Of a stretch of DNA of 64,000 nt, positions 15,505-39,715 are shown piece after piece. Below the pieces are notes generated by a model. It made no database searches, was not told the DNA's origin, and saw only the letters and a program-made list of their open reading frames with translations. This DNA comes from Olleya namhaensis (GTDB taxonomy: Bacteria; Bacteroidota; Bacteroidia; Flavobacteriales; Flavobacteriaceae), in the NCBI RefSeq assembly GCF_900114005.1, contig NZ_FORM01000001.1, positions 434,001-498,000 of the forward strand, read 5' to 3'. A program made the translations under genes and the position numbers. Each line of letters begins with the position of its first letter. Within the stretch, counting starts at the first letter, position 1.

Positions 15505-16779
15505 TTACTCAGGATACTTCCCTCTAATCCCATCCAAACACAAATTACCAATACTACCAACATGCGTGTGTTTTTTAGAGGTATCTGGTACATAAGTTCC
15601 ACTTTCCACTTCGCCTCCAATTTTTTGATACGCTTCTCTAAAAGGCATACCTCCCACAACCAATGTATTAATATTATCTACCGTAAATAAGTATTGATAT
15701 TTAGCATCATTCAAATCAATATCTTTTACAATGACTTGCTGAATGGCATAATTAAAAATATCTAATAAATCTTTTACATCTTCAATTGCTGCAATTATGT
15801 TTTCCTTTAACAACTGAAAATCTCTATGGTAACCACTTGGTAAATTATTAGTAATTAACACCATTTCAGTATGCAAAGCTTGAATCTTATTGGCCTTTCC
15901 ACGGATTAATTCAAACACATCTGGATTCTTTTTATGTGGCATAATACTACTCCCCGTCGTTAACTCATCCGGAAAGGCAATAAAGCCAAAATTCTGACTA
16001 TTATACACACAAATATCCATTGCAAAACGCGCTAAAGTATTACACACACTTCCTAAAGCTAAAGCGATTGTTCGTTCGCTTTTTCCTCTACTCATTTGCG
16101 CAGCAACAACGTTGTATTTTAAGGTTGAAAAATTTAATTCTTTAGTCGTTAATTCTCGATCAATAGGAAACGAACTTCCGTAACCCGCTGCAGAACCTAA
16201 CGGATTTTGATCTACGGTTTTCAAGGCTGCATTTAGCAAGTATACATCATCAATTAAAACCTCAGCATAAGCAGAAAACCACAATCCAAAGGAAGATGGC
16301 ATAGCTACTTGTAAATGCGTATAACCAGGAAGTAAAGCGTCTTTATGCGTTTCCGCCAAACCTAAAAGGGTCTCAAAAAACGTTTTTGTCTTCGTATTAA
16401 TTTCTTTTAAATTCTCCTTGTAATAAAGCTGAAGCGCAACTAAAACTTGATCGTTTCTAGAACGTGCGGTATGGATTTTCTTTCCGACATCTCCTAAGGT
16501 TTTAGTCAGCTCATATTCAATTTTAGAATGCACATCTTCAAAGGATTCTTCAATAACAAAGGTTCCGTTTTCTATAGTTTCCGCAATAACGTGCAAACCA
16601 TTTTTTAATTGTTGCAATTCTTCCGAAGAAATAATGCCAATAGACTCCAACATTATTGCATGCGCTAAAGACGCTTGCACATCGTACTTTGCAATATGCA
16701 TATCAATTTCTCTATCGTTTCCAACGGTAAATTGTTCTATTTTTTTATCGATACTTATTCCTTTGTCCCAGAGTTTCAT
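15505..16779 (-). CDS. argH: Argininosuccinate lyase
   Basis: Splits argininosuccinate into arginine and fumarate, the last step of the pathway. The fumarase/aspartase-superfamily signature GSSIMPHKKNPD is present near residue 270, with TARSRNDQV and PGYTHLQ upstream as in other ArgH proteins. 424 residues is slightly shorter than the common 450-470, because the C-terminal region is compact. It begins 9 bp after the ArgE-like gene and is the last gene of the arginine operon. Confidence 0.95.
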   Translation of the reverse strand: MKLWDKGISIDKKIEQFTVGNDREIDMHIAKYDVQASLAHAIMLESIGIISSEELQQLKNGLHVIAETIENGTFVIEESFEDVHSKIEYELTKTLGDVGKKIHTARSRNDQVLVALQLYYKENLKEINTKTKTFFETLLGLAETHKDALLPGYTHLQVAMPSSFGLWFSAYAEVLIDDVYLLNAALKTVDQNPLGSAAGYGSSFPIDRELTTKELNFSTLKYNVVAAQMSRGKSERTIALALGSVCNTLARFAMDICVYNSQNFGFIAFPDELTTGSSIMPHKKNPDVFELIRGKANKIQALHTEMVLITNNLPSGYHRDFQLLKENIIAAIEDVKDLLDIFNYAIQQVIVKDIDLNDAKYQYLFTVDNINTLVVGGMPFREAYQKIGGEVESGTYVPDTSKKHTHVGSIGNLCLDGIRGKYPE

Positions 16780-16788
16780 AATTTTATT

Positions 16789-17850
16789 TTAAAGTACTTT
16801 TTCTAATAATTCAATATATATTTTAATCCCTTCTTCAATCTCATTCACGTAAATAAACTCGTCAGCGGAATGCGATCGTGTGCTATCTCCTGGTCCTAGT
16901 TTTAAAGACGGACAACTCAACACCGCTTGATCAGATAATGTTGGCGAACCATAAGTGCTTCTACCAATTTCTATTCCTGCAATTACCAATGGATGATCGA
17001 TAGGAATGGACGACGAATTTAATTTTATGCTACGCGGAATAATACTATCACAAGGCGCTTCTTTCTGTAAAATATCGACAATGTCTTGGTTAGAATATTT
17101 ATCGTTTACACGTACATCAACCACTAATTTCACATCTGCAGGAACCGCATTATGCTGCTTTCCTGCATTTATTTGCGTAACAGTCAACTTTACCTCTCCT
17201 AAAGCTTCAGATGTTTTATTAAATGTGTAATTTTTAAACCATTCTAAAACTGGAATGGTATTATAAATCGCATTATCATGATTTGGATGCGCAGCATGAC
17301 TAGGCGTTCCTTTTACGATTGCATCAAACACAACTAAGCCTTTTTCAGCAACAGCTAAATTCATTAAAGTTGGTTCTCCAACAATAGCGACATCCACTTT
17401 TGGAATGACCGACAACATACTATTTAACCCATTTTCTCCACTGCTCTCTTCTTCAGCGGAAGCGACAATAACCAGATTATAATTAAGTTCATTTTTGTCG
17501 TAGAAATAGGCAAACGTTGCTAACAAACTCACCAAACATCCTCCAGCATCATTACTTCCTAAACCATATAATCTACCATCTTCAACAATGGCTTTAAAAG
17601 GATCTTTTGTATAACCATTATTTGGCTTTACAGTATCATGATGCGAGTTTAACAACAGCGTTGGTTTGCTCTCGTCAAAATATTTATTGGTTGCCCAAAC
17701 ATTATGATTGGTTCTTTTAAAAGGAATATCCTGCTGCACAAACCATTGCTCAATATGCGCTGCTGTTGGTCCTTCTTCTGAAGAAAACGACTGCGTTTCT
17801 ATTAATTGTTTTAATAAAGCAATTGCTCTTGCTGTTAGTTTTTCTATCAT
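16789..17850 (-). CDS. argE: M20 family deacylase, probable N-acyl-L-ornithine deacylase
   Basis: Releases ornithine or citrulline from its acyl group in linear arginine synthesis. The 353-residue M20 peptidase shows the metal motifs NSHHDTVKP (near residue 70), GSNDAGGCLVSL with the bridging Asp, and the general-base pair in SAEEESSGENG. The ATG overlaps the argB stop by 4 bp (ATGA). Because the operon contains an acyl-ornithine carbamoyltransferase, the natural substrate is probably acyl-citrulline rather than acyl-ornithine. Succinyl versus acetyl cannot be settled from sequence alone. DapE-like activity is less likely given the context. Confidence 0.85.
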   Translation of the reverse strand: MIEKLTARAIALLKQLIETQSFSSEEGPTAAHIEQWFVQQDIPFKRTNHNVWATNKYFDESKPTLLLNSHHDTVKPNNGYTKDPFKAIVEDGRLYGLGSNDAGGCLVSLLATFAYFYDKNELNYNLVIVASAEEESSGENGLNSMLSVIPKVDVAIVGEPTLMNLAVAEKGLVVFDAIVKGTPSHAAHPNHDNAIYNTIPVLEWFKNYTFNKTSEALGEVKLTVTQINAGKQHNAVPADVKLVVDVRVNDKYSNQDIVDILQKEAPCDSIIPRSIKLNSSSIPIDHPLVIAGIEIGRSTYGSPTLSDQAVLSCPSLKLGPGDSTRSHSADEFIYVNEIEEGIKIYIELLEKVL

Positions 17851-18623
17851 TTTGAAATGGTTGTGTGTTTATTATTTTTATCGAAAAGCATTTCTGATTT
17901 ACCAATACAAACTTTTTGTACTTGATTATTTACAGCATGAAAACAGTTATTTAATTTTGGCAGCATGCCTTCATAAATAATACCATTTTCAATTAACGGT
18001 TGGTAGCTTTTGGTGTTTATGTTTTCGATAACAGAATTGTCATTATTTACATTTTCTAAAACTCCGTTTTTTTCGAAGCAATAATATAATTCCGTTTTAT
18101 ATATTGAAGCAAAACCTATTGCTAATTCGGAAGCAATCGTATCTGCGTTTGTATTTAATAATTGTCCTTTTTTGTCATGTGTAATTGCGCAAAAAACAGG
18201 AGTAATTTCGTTATTTAAAAGAATTTCTAACGTTTCAGTATTTACCTTTTTGACGTCTCCAGCAAATCCATAATCGATAGGTTTTGATGGTCTTAAATCT
18301 GAAACTATCGTGTTGCCATCCGCTCCAGAAAAACCAATAGCATTACAATTGTGAGCTTGTAATTGTGCGACTATAGTTTTATTGATTTTTCCAGCATACA
18401 CCATTGTAATAATATCTAAAGTCACTTGATCGGTTACTCGTCTTCCGTCAATCATTTTAACCTCCACTTGCATTTGTTGTGCTAATTTGGTTGCTAATTT
18501 TCCACCACCATGCACTAGGATTTTAGGAGCATCTATAGTCGCAAATGCTTTTAGGAATTGCTTTAAGGCGTCATCATCATCGATGATATTTCCTCCAATT
18601 TTTATGATTTTTAGTGTTTTCAT
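17847..18623 (-). CDS. argB: N-acylglutamate kinase
   Basis: Phosphorylates N-acetyl- or N-succinylglutamate. The start at 18623 (MKTLKIIKIGGNIIDD) puts the KIGGN phosphate-binding motif at the N-terminus as in the family. A longer frame to 18686 translates repeat DNA and is rejected. HGGGKLATKLAQQM gives the glycine-rich loop near residue 40. At 258 residues it lacks the N-terminal helix of arginine-inhibited kinases, so direct arginine inhibition is not expected. It overlaps argE by 4 bp. A 332-bp repeat-filled gap separates it from argF'. Confidence 0.93.
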   Translation of the reverse strand: MKTLKIIKIGGNIIDDDDALKQFLKAFATIDAPKILVHGGGKLATKLAQQMQVEVKMIDGRRVTDQVTLDIITMVYAGKINKTIVAQLQAHNCNAIGFSGADGNTIVSDLRPSKPIDYGFAGDVKKVNTETLEILLNNEITPVFCAITHDKKGQLLNTNADTIASELAIGFASIYKTELYYCFEKNGVLENVNNDNSVIENINTKSYQPLIENGIIYEGMLPKLNNCFHAVNNQVQKVCIGKSEMLFDKNNKHTTISK

Positions 18624-18639
18624 GCTTATTCTTCTTTTG

Positions 18640-18953
18640 ATGTGATACTGAAATAAATTCAGTATGACGTGACGGGTTAACATCAACTTGTTACTTACTT
18701 TAAATCTTCAGTCGTCAAGCTGAACTTGTTTCAGGGTCTCATTATTTACTAGTTGTGTGATGCTGAAATACAATCAGTATGACGTGACGGGTTAACATCA
18801 ACTTATTACTTACTTTAAAACCTCAGTCGACAAGCTAAACTTGTTTCAGTGTCTCATTATTTAGTAGTTGTGTGACGCTGAAATGAATTCAGTATGACGA
18901 TGTAATCTGTTTCAATTAAAAGATTGCTTCAATCGTTCCTCATTCGCAATGAC
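18640..18953. repeat. 115-bp tandem repeat, 2.3 units, plus a family C repeat
   Basis: The segment AGTATGACGTGACGGGTTAAC recurs with a 115-bp period: the AGTATGACG element starts at 18661, 18776 and 18891. Each unit carries a short CTGAA-ATTCAG hairpin and a GTCAAGCTGAACTTGTTTCAG arm. At 18915-18953 a separate repeat, GATTGCTTCAATCGTTCCTC followed by CGCAATGACG, ends just before the argF' stop. There is no coding sequence in the gap. Confidence 0.85.
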
Positions 18954-18955
18954 GT

Positions 18956-19891
18956 TTATAATTCTTCCAAAATCTGCTTCAACACAATTTGCGCAGCAAA
19001 AGTCCTATTGTTTGCTTGCTGAATCACAACAGAATGCTCGCCATCCAAAACCGCATCTTCCACAACCACATTACGTCTTACAGGTAAGCAATGCATAAAT
19101 TTTGCATTACCCAACTTCGCTTTAGTCATCATCCAATTCTCGTCCTGACTCAGTACTTTTCCATAGTCTTTATAATTACTCCAGTTTTTCACATACACAA
19201 AATCGGCATCTTTCAAAGCGTCTTCTTGATTGTGATTTATTGGTGTGTTTTTCGTAATTGCTTCGCTTAATTCATAACCTTCAGGATGAGTAATTGTTAA
19301 ATCGACATCCATATTTTGCATCATTTCTACAAACGAATTTGCAACCGCTTGTGGCAATGCTTTTGGATGTGGCGCCCAAGACAAGACTACTTTTGGTTTC
19401 GCTTTTTTAGATAATTCAGTTATAGTAATAGCATCTGCCAATGCTTGTAAAGGATGCGCTGTTGCACTCTCCATATTTACAATTGGCACTGTTGCGTATT
19501 TTATAAAGCTGTTCATCACAAACTCACTTTCATCTTTTTTCTTATCTGTTAAACTTGGGAATGCTCTAACCGCAATCACATCTCCATACTGCGAAATCAC
19601 TTGTGCAGCCTCTTTAATGTGTTCTGACGTGTTTGCACTCATGATTGTTCCATCTTCAAATTCTAGGTTCCATGCGTCATTCACATTTAGGATCATCACA
19701 TCCATTCCTAGGTTCTTTGCTGCTTTTTCGGTACTTAATCGCGTTCGTAAACTGGAATTAAAAAACAGCATGACTAATGTTTTATGTTTTCCTAAATCTT
19801 CGAATTCAAAAGGATTATTTTTTAGTGAAATCGCGTCCTTTATAGTTTCTTGAAGATTTGATATGTCTTTTATTTCTGTATACTTTTTCAT
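18956..19891 (-). CDS. argF': N-acyl-L-ornithine carbamoyltransferase (ArgF')
   Basis: Transfers a carbamoyl group to N-acylated ornithine, the variant step known from Bacteroidota and Xanthomonas. The carbamoyl-phosphate motif FFNSSLRTRLSTEK starts at residue 43, followed by HPLQALAD and the C-terminal HCLPVRRNV. The short length (311) and HPLQ rather than HPTQ match the succinyl/acetyl-ornithine enzymes, not ordinary OTCase. The specificity loop reads ANTSEHIKEAA (residues 86-96), with Ser89 where I recall the Bacteroides succinyl enzyme has proline, so the acyl preference is open. It lies between two tandem-repeat gaps in the arg operon. Confidence 0.9.
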   Translation of the reverse strand: MKKYTEIKDISNLQETIKDAISLKNNPFEFEDLGKHKTLVMLFFNSSLRTRLSTEKAAKNLGMDVMILNVNDAWNLEFEDGTIMSANTSEHIKEAAQVISQYGDVIAVRAFPSLTDKKKDESEFVMNSFIKYATVPIVNMESATAHPLQALADAITITELSKKAKPKVVLSWAPHPKALPQAVANSFVEMMQNMDVDLTITHPEGYELSEAITKNTPINHNQEDALKDADFVYVKNWSNYKDYGKVLSQDENWMMTKAKLGNAKFMHCLPVRRNVVVEDAVLDGEHSVVIQQANNRTFAAQIVLKQILEEL

Positions 19892-20422: not shown

Positions 20423-21553
20423 CTACCCCTGCAACTCACTTTTTAAAGCCTCAAAAAGCAAATCAACATGTTCTTTTTTGATGGTTAAAGGCGGAAGAAT
20501 TCGTAATAAATTAGGATTCTTCGCACTTCCTGTAAATATTTTATGTTCAAAAATTAGCTTTTTACGTAGTTCAGAAATCGGAAAATCAAATTCCAATCCT
20601 AACATTAAACCACGTCCTTTTATGTTTTTAACTGCCGAAATTCCTTTTGCTTTTTCAATAAAATAAGCTGAGATGTCTTTAGCATTTTGCATTAAATGCT
20701 CTTCTTCAATTACTTCCAAAACAGTAGAAGATGCAACACATGCCAAGTGGTTTCCACCAAAAGTGGTTCCTAACAAACCAAAGGAAGCTTTAATATTTGG
20801 ATGAATTAAAATCCCACCAATCGGAAACCCATTTCCCATACCTTTGGCAATCGAAATAATATCTGGAGTCACATTATATTTCTGAAACGCGAAGAAATCG
20901 CCAGTTCTTCCAAAACCAGATTGCACCTCATCTGCAATAAAACAGGTATTGTATTTTTTACATAATACATCGACACCTTCGTAAAACGCTGCAGTACTTT
21001 CGTCTAAACCTCCAACACCCTGAATACACTCAATAATTACTGCACAAACATCGTTTTTAGCTAGTGCTTTTTCTACAGCTTCTAAGTCTCCTAATTCTAG
21101 AATCTCAACCTCTTGTTGTGCGTTAATTGGCGCAATAATCTTCGTATTATCTGTTGCCGCAACTGCTGCTGATGTACGACCATGAAAGCCATTTTTAAAA
21201 GCAACTACTTTTTTCTTTCCGTTATGGAATGACGCCAGTTTTAAAGCATTTTCATTGGCTTCTGCTCCAGAATTACACAAAAACAATTCATAGTCTGTAC
21301 AACCTGACAATTGCTCTAACTTGTCGGCTAATTGTACTTGTAACGGGTTCTGAATCGAGTTGCTATAAAACCCTAATTTGGCTACTTGATCAGAAATGGC
21401 AGCCACATATTTTGGATGCGAATGCCCAATAGAAATCACAGCATGTCCACCATATAAATCTAAATATTTGGTGTTATTTTCATCGTAAACAAAGACATCT
21501 ACAGCTTTTACTGGTGTGATATCGAATAATGGATAGACGTTAAATAAACTCAT
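20423..21553 (-). CDS. argD: N-acylornithine aminotransferase
   Basis: PLP-dependent class III aminotransferase that makes N-acylornithine from the semialdehyde and glutamate. The PLP lysine is Lys237 in SIAKGMGNGFPIGG. FIADEVQSGFGRTG supplies the cofactor aspartate, and NSGAEANENALK the phosphate contacts. 376 residues is slightly short for the family but the fold looks complete. The start overlaps the proC stop by 4 bp, showing translational coupling. The paralogous ornithine aminotransferase is less likely given its neighbours. Confidence 0.93.
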   Translation of the reverse strand: MSLFNVYPLFDITPVKAVDVFVYDENNTKYLDLYGGHAVISIGHSHPKYVAAISDQVAKLGFYSNSIQNPLQVQLADKLEQLSGCTDYELFLCNSGAEANENALKLASFHNGKKKVVAFKNGFHGRTSAAVAATDNTKIIAPINAQQEVEILELGDLEAVEKALAKNDVCAVIIECIQGVGGLDESTAAFYEGVDVLCKKYNTCFIADEVQSGFGRTGDFFAFQKYNVTPDIISIAKGMGNGFPIGGILIHPNIKASFGLLGTTFGGNHLACVASSTVLEVIEEEHLMQNAKDISAYFIEKAKGISAVKNIKGRGLMLGLEFDFPISELRKKLIFEHKIFTGSAKNPNLLRILPPLTIKKEHVDLLFEALKSELQG

Positions 21554-22350
21554 ATCTGCTCTTCTTTAATGTTACTAATCTTGTTAAACGAGGCAATCAT
21601 ACCTTGTATTAAAGAGGAACTCAATCCTTTGTGCTCCATCTCATTCAAACCTTCAATCGTACACCCTTTTGGAGTCGTTACACGATCTATTTCCTCTTCC
21701 GGATGATTCCCGTTGGTAATCAATAAGCTCGCAGCACCTTCACTGGTATACATCGCTAATTCTTGCGCTTCTTTAGCATCAAACCCTAACTGAATAGCAG
21801 CTTGTGTTGTCGCTCTAATTAAACGCATCCAAAACGCAACACCACTTGCGCAAACCACAGTGGCTGCTTGCATTTGACTCTCCGGAATACTCAACGAATG
21901 TCCTAAACGGTTAAAAATAGCCTCAGCGATTTTAATACGTTTCGCTCCTTGCACATTACTACACAAACACGTCATGGATTTACCAACTGCAATTGCTGTG
22001 TTTGGCATCGCACGAATGATAAATTTATCGGCACCAACTTGCGCTTCAATCTTAGGAATTAAAAAACCAGTAATGGTCGAAATCAAGACGTGCTTCTCTG
22101 TTAACTCCGGCTTAATGTAATTCAATATTTGCTCAAAATGCGCTGGTTGCACTGCAAAAATGATGATATCAGATTGCCTTACAGCTTCGGTATTATCCGT
22201 TGTTAAATGCACATTTTTATAACCATCAAATTCTTGAATGTCTTCCAAATTCCGTTTGGTTAAATACAAACTAGTAATGGCATTGTTGGTTATCAATCCT
22301 TTTGCGATGGACTTTCCTAAGTTTCCTGTTCCTATAATTGCTATTTTCAT
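21550..22350 (-). CDS. proC: Pyrroline-5-carboxylate reductase
   Basis: Reduces pyrroline-5-carboxylate to proline with NAD(P)H. The N-terminal GTGNLGKSIAKGL Rossmann motif and the C-terminal segment GATSLL-like TSEGAASLLITNGNHPEEEIDRV match P5CR; 266 residues is normal. The short connector KGCTIEGLNEME replaces the usual PGGTT motif with PKGCT, a mild variation. Its place inside the arginine operon, overlapping argD, suggests a link between arginine and proline metabolism, or a carry-over of ancestral clustering, rather than a step of arginine synthesis itself. Confidence 0.9.
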   Translation of the reverse strand: MKIAIIGTGNLGKSIAKGLITNNAITSLYLTKRNLEDIQEFDGYKNVHLTTDNTEAVRQSDIIIFAVQPAHFEQILNYIKPELTEKHVLISTITGFLIPKIEAQVGADKFIIRAMPNTAIAVGKSMTCLCSNVQGAKRIKIAEAIFNRLGHSLSIPESQMQAATVVCASGVAFWMRLIRATTQAAIQLGFDAKEAQELAMYTSEGAASLLITNGNHPEEEIDRVTTPKGCTIEGLNEMEHKGLSSSLIQGMIASFNKISNIKEEQI

Positions 22351-22667: not shown

Positions 22668-23651
22668 TTAAAAATAAGTTGCTTTTAGTTTTAAACCTTC
22701 TGTTTCATCAAAACCAAACATTAAGTTCATGTTTTGAACAGCTTGTCCCGAAGCGCCTTTTAGTAAATTATCAATAATGCTTGTCACCAATAATTTGTCT
22801 TCATGTTTATGCAAATGAAGAATACACTTATTGGTATTTACTACTTGTTTTAAATGAATCTCATCATCCGAAACCACAGTAAATGCAGCATCTTTATAAA
22901 ATTCGCTATACAATGCTTTTGCGTCTTCCAAGCTTCCTTTAAAATTAGTGTACATGGTTGCGAAAATTCCTCTAGAAAAATCACCGCGATTTGGCATAAA
23001 GTTGATGTCTGACTTAAAGTTAGATTGCAATAGTTTCACCGATTGATTAATCTCTCCTAAATGCTGATGCGTAAAAGCTTTATAATGCGAAAAGTTATTA
23101 TCTCGCCACGTAAAATGAGTAGTTGCAGATAATGATGTTCCTGCTCCTGTTGCTCCTGTAACTGCATTAACGTGTACATCATTTTGCAAAACTTCAGCTT
23201 TAGCTAAAGGCAACAATGCTAACTGAATAGCAGATGCAAAACACCCTGGATTTGCAATGTAATTCGCTTTTTTTATCGCTTCTTTATTTAATTCAGGCAA
23301 ACCATAAACAAACGTTTTTCCTTCAAAAATGGCGTCTTTAGTTAATCTAAAATCATTACTTAAATCAATAATTTTAGTTTCAGCAGAAAATGAATTGTTC
23401 TCTAAAAATGCTTTAGAATTTCCGTGACCTAAACACAAAAACAACACGTCTACTTTTGGGTTAATTTTACTTGAAAATTCCAAATCTGTACTACCAATTA
23501 AATCTTGGTGTACTTTATATATCTTATTTCCAGCATTAGAGGTACTGTAAATAAAATTGATGTTAGCTTTTGGATGATTTAACAACAATCTAATAAGTTC
23601 TCCAGCTGTATAACCTGCTCCTCCAATGATTCCTATTTCTAATTTTTTCAT
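22668..23651 (-). CDS. argC: N-acyl-gamma-glutamyl-phosphate reductase
   Basis: NADPH-dependent reduction of acylglutamyl phosphate to the semialdehyde. IGGAGYTAGELIRLL at the N-terminus binds the cofactor, and the catalytic cysteine is Cys137 in NYIANPGCFASAIQ. The later HQHLGEI motif holds a conserved histidine. 327 residues is typical of the short ArgC form. It is 317 bp before proC and 122 bp after argG, both gaps filled with REP-like elements. Confidence 0.95.
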   Translation of the reverse strand: MKKLEIGIIGGAGYTAGELIRLLLNHPKANINFIYSTSNAGNKIYKVHQDLIGSTDLEFSSKINPKVDVLFLCLGHGNSKAFLENNSFSAETKIIDLSNDFRLTKDAIFEGKTFVYGLPELNKEAIKKANYIANPGCFASAIQLALLPLAKAEVLQNDVHVNAVTGATGAGTSLSATTHFTWRDNNFSHYKAFTHQHLGEINQSVKLLQSNFKSDINFMPNRGDFSRGIFATMYTNFKGSLEDAKALYSEFYKDAAFTVVSDDEIHLKQVVNTNKCILHLHKHEDKLLVTSIIDNLLKGASGQAVQNMNLMFGFDETEGLKLKATYF

Positions 23652-23773: not shown

Positions 23774-25015
23774 TCAAGAATTTACTTGTTGATAAATCTT
23801 ATTTTGGTTTCCTACAATTTTGATAAACCCTTTTGCTTCTTCAGCAGTCCAACCTTTATTTTCTTCGCCATAACTTCCAAACTTTGCATTCATTAAATCA
23901 TGTTTAGAGCTGATTCCGTCTACAGTAAAATAGTATGGTTTTAAGGTCACAAAAACATCTCCCGACACTTTGTCTTGGCTGCTTTGCAAAAAGGCTTCCA
24001 TGTCACGCATTACAGGATCTAAATACTGACCTTCATGCAAATGCATTCCGTAGAAATTTGACATATAATCTTTGTGCTGTAATTGCCATTTTGTTAGTGT
24101 ATGCTTTTCTAATAAATGGTGTGCTTTTATTATCACCAAAGCAGCAGCAGCTTCAAAACCAACACGTCCTTTAATACCAACTATTGTATCTCCAACGTGA
24201 ATATCTCTACCAATTGCATACGCAGACGCCAGATTGTTTAACACTTCAATATTTACGTCTGATGCATTTTCAACTCCATTAACAGCAACCAATTCTCCTT
24301 TTAAAAAGGTTAATGTCACTTTTTCATCCTCAGTACGTTTTAATTGCGAAGGATAAGCACTTTCTGGTAATGGTTTTTCTGATGTTAATGTTTCTTCTCC
24401 ACCAACACTGGTTCCCCAAAGTCCTTTATTAACAGAATATTTTGCCTTTTCCCAAGATGCTTCGATACCGTTTTCTTTTAAGTAATCAATTTCTTGTTGT
24501 CTGCTTAAACTTCCATCTCTAATGGGCGTGATAATTTTAATATGTGGCGCTAACGTTTGAAAAATCATATCAAAACGCACTTGATCGTTTCCTGCTCCTG
24601 TGCTTCCGTGTGCGATATATTCGGCATCAATACTTTTTGCATATTCGATAATTTCGATTGCCTGAATAATACGCTCTGCACTTACAGATAAAGGATAGGT
24701 GTTATTCTTCAAAACATTTCCGAAGATTAAATACTTAATCACTTTATCATAATACGAGGCAATTGCGTCAATGTTTTTATAAGTTGACACACCCATTTTA
24801 TACGCATTAGCTTCAATGGTTTGAATTTCTTCATCAGAAAAGCCACCCGTATTTACACTTACTGCATGCACATCGTAACCTGCTTTACTTAAACTTACTG
24901 CGCAATAGGATGTATCTAATCCACCACTATATGCTATTACTAATTTTCCCTTTCTGTCACTTTGTGACATCTTTCCCGAAGGGAAAACATCATCGGATTT
25001 ATTCGTTTTTTTCAT
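23774..25015 (-). CDS. argG: Argininosuccinate synthase with repeat-derived N-terminal extension
   Basis: ATP-dependent condensation of citrulline and aspartate. KLVIAYSGGLDTSYCAVSL is the PP-loop, and SVNTGGFSDEE, STGAGNDQVRFD and the SVNKGLWG segment follow as in the family. The expected family start would give MKKLVIAYSGG directly. Here about 20 extra residues (KSDDVFPSGKMSQSDRKG) lie between MKK and LVIAY and are encoded by a double-hairpin repeat. The first ATG (25015) overlaps the upstream GNAT gene by 17 bp; an internal ATG at 24970 could also serve. Length 413 against about 394 expected. Function is not in doubt. Confidence 0.93.
   Translation of the reverse strand: MKKTNKSDDVFPSGKMSQSDRKGKLVIAYSGGLDTSYCAVSLSKAGYDVHAVSVNTGGFSDEEIQTIEANAYKMGVSTYKNIDAIASYYDKVIKYLIFGNVLKNNTYPLSVSAERIIQAIEIIEYAKSIDAEYIAHGSTGAGNDQVRFDMIFQTLAPHIKIITPIRDGSLSRQQEIDYLKENGIEASWEKAKYSVNKGLWGTSVGGEETLTSEKPLPESAYPSQLKRTEDEKVTLTFLKGELVAVNGVENASDVNIEVLNNLASAYAIGRDIHVGDTIVGIKGRVGFEAAAALVIIKAHHLLEKHTLTKWQLQHKDYMSNFYGMHLHEGQYLDPVMRDMEAFLQSSQDKVSGDVFVTLKPYYFTVDGISSKHDLMNAKFGSYGEENKGWTAEEAKGFIKIVGNQNKIYQQVNS
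24950..24994. repeat. Double-hairpin repeat inside the argG start region (family E)
   Basis: On the argG sense strand, TTTCCC-TTC-GGGAAA and GTCAC-AAA-GTGAC are adjacent perfect hairpins. They lie in frame within the first 22 codons of argG. Confidence 0.7.
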
Positions 25016-25634
25016 TCTTTTCTTTTTTAAGGAACATGGATTGCTTAATGTTTTTCAATCTGGTCCATACTTTTTTATCATGATTATTTGCTGCTGGTTT
25101 TGCTGCTTCCTTTTTAGAAGGATCATACAACATACCTGTACATAAGCACATTTTTTGCTCTGTTCTTGTTAAAACATCAAAGTTTTTGCAGGTCTGACAG
25201 CCATTCCAAAAGGATTGATCGTCTGTTAATTCTGAAAACGTCACAGGTTTATAACCTAAATCACTATTCATTTTCATAACTGCTAAACCTGTAGTAATAC
25301 TAAATACTTTAGCCTCCGGAAACTTGGTTCTAGAATGCTCGAATATTTTCTGTTTGATCTGTTTAGCTAAGCCAATGTTTCTAAAATCTGGATGTACAAT
25401 TAATCCAGAATTGGCTACAAATTTGCCATGACCCCATTGTTCGATATAACAAAAGCCTGCAAATTTATCGCCCTCTAAAGCAATAACAGCATTACCATTT
25501 TCCATTTTGGTAATGATGTATTCAGGCTTGCGTTTTGCAATACCAGTTCCTCTAACTTGAGCAGCATCAGCAATAGTGTTACAAATAATATCTGCGTAAA
25601 TACTATGCGATTTATCAGCAATAACAATTTCCAT
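24999..25634 (-). CDS. GNAT acyltransferase with C4 tail, candidate N-acylglutamate synthase
   Basis: First structural gene of the arginine operon. The GNAT fold is shown by the acyl-CoA motif VHPDFRNIGLAKQI (residues 80-93, R-x-x-G-x-A). A GNAT-unlike C-terminal tail follows with four cysteines, CQTC (146, 149) and CLC (163, 165), a possible zinc or iron knuckle, then a lysine-rich end. The operon lacks argA and argJ, so the acyl donor reaction on glutamate has no other enzyme here. I infer that this protein makes N-acetyl- or N-succinylglutamate. A regulatory or unrelated acyltransferase role is possible. Its 3' end overlaps argG by 17 bp. Confidence 0.75.
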   Translation of the reverse strand: MEIVIADKSHSIYADIICNTIADAAQVRGTGIAKRKPEYIITKMENGNAVIALEGDKFAGFCYIEQWGHGKFVANSGLIVHPDFRNIGLAKQIKQKIFEHSRTKFPEAKVFSITTGLAVMKMNSDLGYKPVTFSELTDDQSFWNGCQTCKNFDVLTRTEQKMCLCTGMLYDPSKKEAAKPAANNHDKKVWTRLKNIKQSMFLKKEKNEKNE

Positions 25635-25635
25635 T

Positions 25636-25869
25636 GTAATTGAATTTTAAATTAAAAAATGTGATAATTTTTGTTTTTGAAAGCAGAACCGGACTCACCT
25701 TAGTTCTATAAATAGAAGTACACCCTAAGGGCGACGACGGAAAATTGGACGTAGGGTTATCCTGTTATTATTTCTAATAACTGTATTTAAAAAAGGAAAT
25801 ATTTGTGTTGAATTGTTCACTGTCTGAAAAAAAATAAAAACTATTAACTAAAAGCTTGAAGTATGCGTA
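25636..25869 (-). promoter_or_regulatory. arg operon leader region downstream of the leader peptide
   Basis: About 230 nt of transcribed leader. A T-rich tract (minus strand, about 25828-25846) follows the peptide stop. The distal CCGTCGTCGC (minus, 25731-25740) is complementary to the Arg-codon stretch GACGACG of the leader peptide. Local folds include TTCTA-TTTA-TAGAA at about 25706-25719 and AACCCTA/TTAGGGT. No single strong intrinsic terminator is obvious, so the decision could be Rho-dependent or at the level of mRNA folding. Confidence 0.4.
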
Positions 25870-25935
25870 TTAGCGACGTCGTCTGCGTAATAGCAAACTT
25901 GTGGGTCTTTCGTTTTTATTTAGTGTTGTAAACAT
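25870..25935 (-). CDS. Arginine-codon leader peptide (attenuation candidate)
   Basis: A 21-codon open frame on the minus strand, ATG at 25935 and TAA ending at 25870. The peptide starts MFTTLNKNERPT and finishes SLLL followed by five arginines (CGC AGA CGA CGT CGC) directly before the stop; one more Arg codon lies at position 10. An Arg-codon run directly upstream of an arginine biosynthesis operon is the classic mark of attenuation by ribosome stalling. The ATG is only 4 nt from the -7 box TACGTTTG, so the mRNA is likely leaderless or nearly so. There is no Shine-Dalgarno. The frame and run are directly visible; the regulatory role is inference. Confidence 0.8.
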   Translation of the reverse strand: MFTTLNKNERPTSLLLRRRRR

Positions 25936-25939
25936 GGTA

Positions 25940-25978
25940 CAAACGTATAATTTAATTTGATACAAAAGTTGATTTTGT
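25940..25978 (-). promoter_or_regulatory. Promoter and possible operator of the arg operon
   Basis: The minus-strand -7 box TACGTTTG (25940-25947) matches TAnnTTTG. A TTTTG at 25963-25967 could be the -33 element, though the 15-bp gap is short. It is embedded in a perfect inverted repeat ACAAAA-N5-TTTTGT (25962-25978), which might bind a regulator. Confidence 0.5.
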
Positions 25979-32957: not shown

Positions 32958-33014
32958 TTATGGTCTACTTCTATTTAAATAATAATCTAAAGTAGAGGTT
33001 TGACCTTTTATAGC

Positions 33015-33039
33015 TAGTCTGTTTTTAAAATACAGACTA
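33015..33039 (-). promoter_or_regulatory. Inverted repeat in the ilvD upstream region
   Basis: TAGTCTGT / ACAGACTA, 8-bp arms around a 9-bp AT loop, about 60-80 bp before the ilvD start. No T tract follows on the sense strand, so it is not an intrinsic terminator. It could be an operator or a 5' UTR fold. Confidence 0.4.
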
Positions 33040-33180
33040 AATTCAGGTTACGAAATAACAGATTAATTAATTGATAATCAACACTTTAAACAGTGTTTAT
33101 TATGACACCCAAGATGTTTAATTTTATTCAATTTCTATAAAAAAGTATTTATAGATCTTGAGGATAATAAAAAAAATGAA

Positions 33181-38843: not shown

Positions 38844-39593
38844 TTGCAAATCCCCTTCAATCCTGAGCTTTTTGGCATTAACATAAACACACATCTTGTG
38901 TTAGAATATCTCGCCTTTTTTATAGCGTATAGATATTATGTGTTTTTAAGAAAACGCAATACAGATGTTATTACAAGTAACAATAGATTGTCTATAATTC
39001 TAGGTGCAACTTTAGGTGCTTTAGCTGGCTCAAGATTGGTTGGGTTTCTAGAAAATCCTTTAATTGAATTTACATTAAATAATGCCATTACATTACTAAA
39101 CACAAAAACCATAATGGGTGGTTTATTTGGCGGTTTACTTGGTGTGGAATTGGCAAAGAAAATAATTAACGAAAAGCACTCGTCTGGAGATTTATTTGTC
39201 TTCCCTATAATTTTAGGAATTTTTATTGGTCGTATTGGATGTTTCTTATCTGGTACTAACGAGTTTACTTATGGCAAAGTCACTACTTCTACTTTTGGAA
39301 TGGATTTAGGTGATGGCTTACTTCGACATCCCACCTCTTTATATGAGTTGTTTTTTTTAATCTTTTTATTTATAGCTTTAAAAACTGTAAACAATAGATT
39401 ACAGTTAAAAAACGGAGATTTGTTTAAGATTTTTATGCTCAGTTATTTTGGCTTTAGGTTTTGTATCGAGTTTTTAAAACCTAATGTGTTTTATACTTTT
39501 GGTTTAAGTAGTATTCAAATATTATGTGTAATTTGTTGGTTGTATTACAGCAAATTTATTGCTAGTCTTTTACTTACCAAACACCCGCGTTAG
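38844..39593 (+). CDS. Prolipoprotein diacylglyceryl transferase-family membrane protein
   Basis: About seven hydrophobic segments over 249 residues. Lgt-like marks are GRIGCFLSG (129-137; canonical Lgt has GRIGNF, so the conserved Asn is Cys133), HPTSLYE (162-168, canonical HPSQLYE) and FRFCIEFLKP near 204. These show a diverged Lgt fold, probably not the housekeeping enzyme. The start is TTG 38844, forced by the reading frame. The last codon and stop are supplied by a dispersed repeat. It is followed by a Tes-like radical SAM gene, and a joint role in lipid modification is inferred. Confidence 0.8.
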   Translation: MQIPFNPELFGININTHLVLEYLAFFIAYRYYVFLRKRNTDVITSNNRLSIILGATLGALAGSRLVGFLENPLIEFTLNNAITLLNTKTIMGGLFGGLLGVELAKKIINEKHSSGDLFVFPIILGIFIGRIGCFLSGTNEFTYGKVTTSTFGMDLGDGLLRHPTSLYELFFLIFLFIALKTVNNRLQLKNGDLFKIFMLSYFGFRFCIEFLKPNVFYTFGLSSIQILCVICWLYYSKFIASLLLTKHPR

Positions 39594-39715
39594 CGATAGA
39601 AACGGTATCCTTTTTTACGTCAGTTCGAGTATTTTGTGAAGCATGAGCAAAATGTATCGAGAACAAGTAAAAAAGATTTAGTGGATAGCGCGACCCTTGT
39701 GGTAACGCCAAAATA
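39588..39715. repeat. Dispersed ~130-bp repeat (family D), copy 2
   Basis: Inverse copy of the element at 22526-22652. Shared blocks are ACGTCAGTTCGAGT, TTGTGAAGCATGAGCAAA, GTATCGAGAACAAG and CGCGACCCTTGTGGTAACGC. It forms the end of the upstream reading frame and nearly the whole gap to the radical SAM gene. Confidence 0.85.

What the first reader, a model, noticed from the sequence alone, without database searches (positions are those of the whole stretch)
25870..25935. Leader peptide with five consecutive arginine codons before the arginine operon
Directly visible on the minus strand: a 21-codon frame ending SLLL plus five Arg codons (CGC AGA CGA CGT CGC) and TAA, 236 bp upstream of the first arg operon gene. 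Arg-codon runs of this kind are the established signature of ribosome-mediated attenuation. The distal leader contains CCGTCGTCGC (25731-25740, minus), complementary to the GACGACG of the codon run, so alternative pairings are possible. No strong intrinsic terminator is seen, so the mechanism may differ from the enterobacterial type.
Basis: partly seen in the sequence, partly recalled or inferred. Interest (0 to 1): 0.8.

Follow-up and report, generated by a model that had tools for sequence, protein, structure and literature searches.

The report
Double arginine leader before arg operon
Upstream of its arginine-making genes this bacterium carries two tiny arginine-rich reading frames and a conserved RNA hairpin that look like an arginine-starvation sensor, but without the strong stop signal that its own histidine and phenylalanine leaders have.

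Summary
In detail: MFTTLNKNERPTSLLLRRRRR* (LP1, 25870-25935, -) lies 235 nt before the arg operon, and such frames recur there in relatives. The "complementary" CCGTCGTCGC is the Arg-codon run of a second leader frame (LP2, 25725-25820, GTG start...RPIFRRRP*), followed by hairpin H1, a U-rich spacer of about 12 nt and hairpin H2, whose stem covaries under a conserved tip AGGUGNGUCC. LP2-H1-H2 looks like the older core: model R2 finds it in 122 of 199 genomes of the family; LP1 is in a subgroup. Outside the family Arg-rich leaders precede the same gene in 40 of 76 loci, shuffles averaging 6.1. The same genome has His and Phe leader peptides with strong terminators; the arg leader has no comparable one, only short H1. 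ArgR was not found. Best reading: ribosomes stalling on Arg codons switch the operon on through H1/H2. The sensing step is well supported by comparison; the output step is unknown; nothing was tested by experiment. New variant of a known kind.

The parts
25940..25947 (-). -7 promoter box TACGTTTG; it ends 4 nt before the LP1 ATG, so the predicted +1 is the A of that ATG (leaderless)
   Evidence: Sequence. TAnnTTTG lies at -12 to -5 in F. psychrophilum (PMC9723704 section 15). In 71 of 101 LP1 leaders the best box (at least 5 of 6 matches) ends exactly 4 nt before ATG. No transcription start was measured.
25870..25935 (-). LP1 leader ORF MFTTLNKNERPTSLLLRRRRR* (the finding); Arg run 25873-25887
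   Evidence: LP1-type frame in 101 of 202 leaders
25881..25898 (-). H0, possible hairpin GTTTGC..GCAGAC overlapping the LP1 Arg run
   Evidence: modest covariation (column pairs 0.70-0.83 paired); probability 0.03 in the full window leader; weak
25725..25820 (-). LP2 leader ORF VNNSTQIFPFLNTVIRNNNRITLRPIFRRRP* (GTG start); Arg run 25731-25739
   Evidence: frame open for 20 or more codons before the Arg-Pro anchor in 178 of 178 anchored leaders, against 23% and 19% in the other two frames; 3 or more Arg (anchor Arg counted) in the last 8 codons in 158 of 178
25764..25781 (-). HL, hairpin inside LP2 (GTTATT AGAAAT AATAAC)
   Evidence: covarying column pairs 0.68-0.92 paired in the 90 leaders that have both ORFs, weaker in LP2-only leaders; probability 0.99 in the window
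25721..25733 (-). H1, hairpin CGCCC-UUA-GGGUG; its 5' arm is the last Arg and Pro codons and the LP2 stop lies in and next to the loop
   Evidence: mostly unvarying, rare compensated forms such as CGCAC/GUGCG (L147)
25684..25708 (-). H2, hairpin with covarying stem and conserved tip AGG-UGNGU-CC (25691-25700)
   Evidence: exact tip in 171 of 202 leaders; stem score 5.84 against 3.76 +/- 0.11 when flanks are re-paired between leaders
25679..25742 (-). LP2 end + H1 + spacer + H2, the unit modelled as R2
   Evidence: model; one significant hit in the genome; 122 of 199 family genomes
24999..25634 (-). GNAT acetyltransferase, lead gene of the arg operon
   Evidence: Pfam PF00583
15505..25015 (-). 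argG (23774-25015), argC (22668-23651), proC (21550-22350), argD-like (20423-21553), N-acetylornithine carbamoyltransferase (18956-19891), argB (17847-18686), argE/dapE-like (16789-17850), argH (15505-16779)
   Evidence: NCBIfam/Pfam: argC, proC, argB, argH and the carbamoyltransferase pass an NCBIfam cut-off; argG passes Pfam cut-offs only; argD and argE lie below their NCBIfam cut-offs. That they form one transcript is inferred from order and strand.

Best explanation
It is an arginine-responsive leader of the arg operon. Transcription starts at, or within a few nucleotides of, a leader start codon. Ribosomes read short peptides that end in runs of arginine codons: LP2 in the core form, LP1 plus LP2 here. 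When charged arginine tRNA is scarce the ribosome stalls on the run, lying over the 5' arm of H1 and a fixed distance before H2; when arginine is plentiful it finishes, leaves, and H1 and H2 form undisturbed. The H1 - U-rich spacer - H2 zone then decides whether the operon is expressed. Supported by comparison: the ORFs, the Arg runs, the H2 stem and tip, the fixed spacing, the link to arg genes. Inferred: translation, stalling, the direction (ON at low arginine), and the output, which I think is most likely premature termination or pausing of RNA polymerase at H1/H2, helped by a factor because no strong intrinsic terminator is present (this output step alone about 0.35).
For: LP1 in 101 of 202 leaders. 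LP2 frame open for 20+ codons in 178 of 178 anchored leaders against 23% and 19% in the other frames; 158 of 178 have 3+ Arg in the last 8 codons, anchor Arg included. R1, built from 78 nearer leaders, hits 95 of 100 more distant leaders at E <= 0.1, 92 of them at E < 0.003. H2 stem covaries: re-pairing control; 6 of 8 H2 pairs with both-side changes, covariation score of the H1+H2 structure 0.219 against 0.136 +/- 0.007, 0 of 500 shuffles. Arg-Pro anchor to H2 tip 30-36 nt in all 178, 32-35 in 170. R2 in 122 of 199 family genomes, one copy each apart from two weak extras; 120 of the 122 also have the acetyltransferase hit, and in the other two (G084, G152) another gene leads but argG and argC follow, so the leader goes with the operon. 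CGC makes 54% and 47% of Arg codons in LP1 and LP2 against 5% in the acetyltransferase genes. No ArgR match in the genome, 9 of 14 control genomes ringing. His and Phe leader peptides with terminators in the same genome suggest that ribosome-mediated attenuation is used here. Outer families: Arg leader 40 of 76 loci, 18 of 27 families; shuffles mean 6.1, maximum 11.
Against: No expression, TSS or ribosome data. 19 of 202 leaders failed the H2 test (5 of them have a compensated tip AGAUGNGUUC) and 5 of the other 183 could not be anchored. In one search two other measures were less extreme: pairs with both-side changes 10 of 500 shuffles, further pair types 17 of 500. H1 passes a loose terminator scan and 46 of 163 distinct leaders have 5+ T in the 8 nt after it, so a weak intrinsic terminator is not excluded. 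36 of 76 outer loci have no Arg leader by the test; four loci of genus g128, same family, show neither leader nor H2. H2 is only moderately stable (z -1.4, 21 of 200 shuffles fold as well; mean ensemble probability 0.51). CGC bias is partly forced by H1. Loci are related, so counts are not independent, and R2 was trained on some of the genomes counted.
Confidence: 0.72

Rival explanations
1. Classical trp/his-type attenuator: leader-peptide stalling switches between mutually exclusive hairpins, one of them an intrinsic terminator.
Against: 6 or more T in the first 8 nt after H1 in 12 of 163 distinct leaders and after H2 in 3 of 163 (5 or more: 46 and 20). LP1-LP2 pairing no better than cross-pairing. 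Averaged ensembles show HL, H1 and H2 but no strong competing helix.
Confidence: 0.12
2. Arginine-dependent mRNA decay: ribosome pausing decides whether H1/H2 are seen by a nuclease, as described for Salmonella speF.
For: In speF, pausing at two Arg codons of orf34 gives an mRNA form resistant to RNase G (PMC6386406 abstract); the arg leader too has structured RNA and no strong terminator.
Against: No nuclease-site signature was tested; nothing here separates it from a transcriptional output.
Confidence: 0.2
3. H2 is a binding site for a protein or a small ligand (possibly arginine itself), so that the leader senses twice.
For: Conserved tip on a covarying stem; hairpins tipped CCUNNGYGG in 9 of 76 outer-family leaders, 0 in 20 shuffled sets, with a pattern made after seeing these leaders; R2 has one significant hit per genome in most genomes.
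Against: No binder identified; no Rfam match at gathering score; the tip could serve a general factor.
Confidence: 0.2
4. LP2 is an arrest peptide of the TnaC/SpeFL kind, sensing free arginine at its Arg-Pro-stop end.
For: The Arg-Pro-stop end resembles TnaC's end as I recall it; Arg also precedes the anchor in 154 of 178.
Against: Arg-Pro itself was my anchor, so its presence in the 178 is by construction; in 33 of 178 the stop is not directly after it and upstream residues vary widely; the same codons are the 5' arm of H1.
Confidence: 0.08

Closest known systems
Ribosome-mediated attenuators of amino-acid operons (hisL, pheL, trpL type)
   Same: Short ORF with a run of the product's codons before the biosynthetic operon; look-alikes in this same genome
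   Different: No strong intrinsic terminator, no detected antiterminator, conserved-tip hairpin H2, two leader ORFs here
Salmonella orf34-speF leader
   Same: Arg codons in a leader ORF set mRNA fate (abstract of PMC6386406)
   Different: Ornithine decarboxylase gene; Rho, RNase G and RBS occlusion; no sequence relation tested
Cys leaders of Mycobacterium cys operons
   Same: Regulatory codon run near the stop and no conserved terminator hairpin (passages of PMC1262725)
   Different: No conserved hairpin in those upstream regions; other amino acid, other phylum
S. aureus rbfL
   Same: Leader peptide that senses arginine limitation (passages of PMC13009471)
   Different: Blocks the RBS of a regulator gene; not before arginine genes
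ermBL/ermBL2
   Same: Two leader peptides in one leader (abstract of PMC8274638)
   Different: Macrolide-induced translational attenuation
Structured 5' regions of F. psychrophilum and sORFs in long 5' UTRs of B. thetaiotaomicron
   Same: 'Strong clues' for leader-peptide attenuation before amino-acid operons (PMC9723704 section 19); sORFs reminiscent of leader peptides (passage of PMC7366714)
   Different: No arg leader named in what I saw (section 19; passages); supplements were not readable here

Membership tests
Ribosome-mediated transcription attenuator (his/trp type) | Leader ORF with a run of cognate codons | tested here: met
   ORFs and codon runs conserved; translation itself not shown
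Ribosome-mediated transcription attenuator (his/trp type) | Intrinsic terminator hairpin plus U run before the first gene | tested here: inconclusive
   No strong one; only H1 passes a loose scan, while the same scan finds 12- and 13-pair terminators at the His and Phe leaders
Ribosome-mediated transcription attenuator (his/trp type) | Mutually exclusive antiterminator pairing | tested here: not met
   no conserved competing helix; pseudoknots not modelled, LP1 and gene start outside the stretch
Ribosome-mediated transcription attenuator (his/trp type) | Amino-acid-dependent readthrough | not testable with these tools
   needs expression data
Known Rfam family (T-box, riboswitches and others) | Match at the gathering score | tested here: not met
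   Window and 16 relatives' loci: nothing at gathering score over the arg leader
ArgR repressor control | ArgR gene in the genome | tested here: not met
   PF01316: 0 matches in the genome, 9 of 14 controls ring
Arrest peptide (TnaC/SpeFL kind) | Conserved nascent-chain residues and fixed stall site | tested here: inconclusive
   Arg before the anchor in 154 of 178; stop displaced in 33 of 178; Arg-Pro fixed by construction

The most novel reading that the evidence does not exclude
LP2-H1-H2 is one version of an old arginine switch spread over the class (Bacteroidia, name recalled): an arginine-codon ribosome sensor coupled at fixed distance to a specific hairpin (tip GG-UGNGU-CC in Flavobacteriaceae, CC-UACGY-GG-like in several other families) that is read by an unidentified factor, standing in for both ArgR and the strong intrinsic terminator of ordinary attenuators; one subgroup has added a second, leaderless Arg peptide in front.
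Probability: 0.35. Interest if true: 0.8.

Novelty: new variant of a known kind. Interest (0 to 1): 0.62.

Why it matters
If right, many members of a large bacterial family sense arginine by a leader whose output is neither a strong intrinsic terminator nor ArgR, and the conserved H2 tip points to an unknown RNA-recognition step. His and Phe leaders in the same genome make a built-in control, and the predicted leaderless start codons make leader translation directly testable in a phylum said to lack Shine-Dalgarno sequences (abstract of PMC6847099).

Tried and rejected
Chance ORF: rejected. LP1-LP2 alternative pairing: rejected. H2 as intrinsic terminator: rejected. Pairing of the H2 tip with the 16S rRNA 3' end: considered from memory; the variable tip base is A, T or C and never G in 171 exact tips, which does not fit; not pursued. 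R1 hit L119 and R2 hit L238 outside the family: no arg gene seen by eye among the listed ORFs, taken as chance. Two weak extra R2 hits in the family (E 7e-4 and 9e-4): G075's lies antisense inside another ORF; near G104's no arg gene was found by tblastn; taken as chance. RNAalifold on the plain MAFFT alignment A1 gave only 4 pairs, I think because the H2 bulge varies in length; I then named the structure myself. H0 in LP1: weak, kept as possible only. An own promoter for LP2 in leaders with both ORFs: 73 of 90 have a 5-of-6 -7 box within 9 nt but none is perfect; unresolved, the tract is T-rich. ilvD leader of the window: no leader peptide seen by eye. Papers: eight searches; among the rows listed (several lists were capped, e.g. 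20 of 60, 10 of 112) I saw no paper on an arg leader in Bacteroidota. Two older surveys of attenuation (Vitreschak 2004, recalled; Lopatovskaya 2010, seen only as a reference) could not be read.

Full report
What is there. On the minus strand, 235 nt before the arg operon, window 25870-25935 encodes MFTTLNKNERPTSLLLRRRRR*. The operon is led by a GNAT acetyltransferase, followed by argG, argC, proC, an argD-like gene, N-acetylornithine carbamoyltransferase, argB, an argE/dapE-like gene and argH. A TACGTTTG box ends exactly 4 nt before the ATG. In F. psychrophilum the TAnnTTTG box spans -12 to -5 (PMC9723704 section 15), so the ATG itself should be +1. In 71 of 101 LP1 leaders the best box (5 or 6 of 6 matches) ends exactly 4 nt before the ATG. 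In 61 LP2-only leaders with an ATG start there are 27 perfect boxes within 19 nt, 20 of them at exactly 7 nt, a predicted 5' UTR of about 3 nt.

Relatives. It was found in 130 of 199 family genomes, 30 of which came as loci. With 100 further stretches fetched this gives 210 leaders, 202 distinct. The alignment of the first 102 distinct ones showed conserved blocks far beyond LP1.

The second peptide. Anchoring on that Arg-Pro (so these two residues are fixed by construction), the frame is open for at least 20 codons in 178 of 178 leaders, against 23% and 19% in the other frames; 158 of 178 have 3 or more Arg, the anchor counted, in the last 8 codons; start codons picked by my rule are ATG 81, TTG 56, GTG 41; the stop follows directly in 145 of 178. 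In the window LP2 is VNNSTQIFPFLNTVIRNNNRITLRPIFRRRP* at 25725-25820. LP1 is present in 101 of 202 leaders, but in only 19 of the 100 more distant ones, whereas model R1, trained on nearer leaders only, hits 95 of these 100. So LP2 with its hairpins looks like the core and LP1 an addition; loss elsewhere is not excluded, as no tree was built. My LP1 test is conservative: L005, read by eye, has the frame but too few Arg at its end.

The hairpins. HL lies inside LP2 and covaries in the 90 leaders with both ORFs. H1 joins the last Arg-Pro codons to GGGUG; 86% of its cells pair in A2, with one of five pairs changed on both sides, so the case for it is mostly consistency plus rare compensated forms. 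H2 is the strong one. It was sought with up to 2 mismatches in the tip and found in 183 of 202 leaders; the tip AGGUGNGUCC is exact in 171, and 5 of the 19 others have a compensated tip AGAUGNGUUC. Stem score is 5.84 against 3.76 +/- 0.11 when 5' and 3' flanks are re-paired between 166 distinct leaders, maximum 4.0 in 200 trials (leaders had been picked for some stem). Six of eight H2 pairs have changes on both sides; for H1+H2 together 0 of 500 shuffles reach the covariation score or the share of paired cells, but 10 and 17 of 500 reach the number of doubly changed pairs and of further pair types. From Arg-Pro to the H2 tip is 30-36 nt in 178 leaders, 32-35 in 170. The H1-H2 spacer is 9-16 nt, 56% U and 6% G.

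What it is tied to. Model R2 (LP2 end, H1, H2) has one significant hit in the window's genome and hits 122 of 199 family genomes at E <= 0.001. Of these 120 also have the acetyltransferase hit; 10 genomes with the acetyltransferase have no R2 hit. In G084 and G152 another gene leads, with no tblastn match to the acetyltransferase, but argG and argC follow, so the leader belongs to the operon. Over 395 genomes of the phylum R2 at E <= 0.01 finds 17, of which 16 belong to the family and one (L238) I take as chance. R2 was trained on some of these genomes, and the stricter filters lose weak matches.

Beyond the family. The acetyltransferase occurs in 83 of 247 genomes of the class at E <= 1e-10. 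Of 76 leaders outside the family (27 families), 40 have an Arg-rich leader ORF, shuffles mean 6.1 and maximum 11; 9 have a hairpin tipped CCUNNGYGG, shuffles 0 in 20 sets; 19 have any UNNGY-tipped hairpin, shuffles mean 5.0 and maximum 9; 5 have both an Arg leader and the CCUNNGYGG hairpin. The hairpin pattern was made after seeing these leaders, so its control is not a blind test. All loci tested of families f7 (3), f17 (5) and f33 (5) lack an Arg leader, and so do four loci of genus g128 within the window's own family. I read this as common descent of an Arg leader with drifting hairpins, but convergence is not excluded.

Internal control. In the same genome hisG is preceded by MNFIQLHHHHFHTSTQAS* and a 12-pair terminator-like hairpin with a T-rich tail, and the prephenate dehydratase gene by MSTINTTYFSWYYFFFNKRNETLYM* and a 13-pair one. 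In the arg leader the same scan finds only H1, 5 pairs. 6 or more T in the first 8 nt follow H1 in 12 of 163 distinct leaders and H2 in 3 of 163; 5 or more in 46 and 20. So H2 is no terminator, and H1 at best a weak one. ArgR is not found in the genome.

How it may work. Arg codons in the leaders are CGC far more often than in genes (54% and 47% against 5%); part of this is forced by H1. Peptide sequence outside the run varies, which favours codon-based stalling over an arrest peptide. A stalled ribosome would lie on H1's 5' arm and just before H2; a released one would leave both free (inference). Averaged ensembles show no strong competing helix, so the classical switch is not seen. I commit, with low certainty for this step, to termination or pausing at H1/H2, probably factor-assisted; decay in the manner of speF (PMC6386406 abstract) is the main rival.

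Known or new. No Rfam match at gathering score over the leader. Transcriptome work in F. psychrophilum reported strong clues for leader-peptide attenuation before amino-acid operons (PMC9723704 section 19), so the general idea is in print; its supplement was not readable here. Eight searches of the held library showed no paper on an arg leader in this phylum among the rows listed; several lists were capped and subscription papers are mostly missing.

Limits. No expression data; loci are related; the 80 named loci are the nearest ones; 19 of 202 leaders without H2 and 5 unanchored ones were left out of later counts; pseudoknots were not modelled.

Noticed in passing
L320 2248-2304 (own genome, G000:C13 about 215.5 kb, -): His leader peptide MNFIQLHHHHFHTSTQAS* with a terminator-like hairpin before hisG.
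   Followed up: partly
L321 2160-2237 (own genome, G000:C19 about 266.9 kb, -): Phe/Tyr-rich leader MSTINTTYFSWYYFFFNKRNETLYM* with a terminator-like hairpin before prephenate dehydratase; by eye ACGAGAC in the ORF is complementary to the hairpin arm.
   Followed up: partly
window 32958-33090 (-): Two inverted repeats (around AGTCTG..CAGACT and GGTC..GACC) just before ilvD, the latter close to the start codon; no leader peptide seen by eye.
   Followed up: no
window 39579-39699 (+): Flavo-1 RNA (RF01705, 49.5 bits), function unknown.
   Followed up: no
L322 654-1238, L323 755-1348: In two genomes a different gene of about 195 codons stands at the head of the arg operon, with the leader kept.
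   Followed up: partly
L246, L247, L249, L269, L277 (family f13): Leaders with a strongly conserved block around CAAATTACC..GACCCC..GGGG; in L247 an ORF MFLKTKHIANKLPSFTRPNRPSRRPHGGIC* can be read by eye that my Arg test missed.
   Followed up: partly
L240-L242, L306 (genus g128): This genus has the acetyltransferase but neither Arg leader nor H2 in the four loci tested, so it may regulate arg genes otherwise.
   Followed up: no
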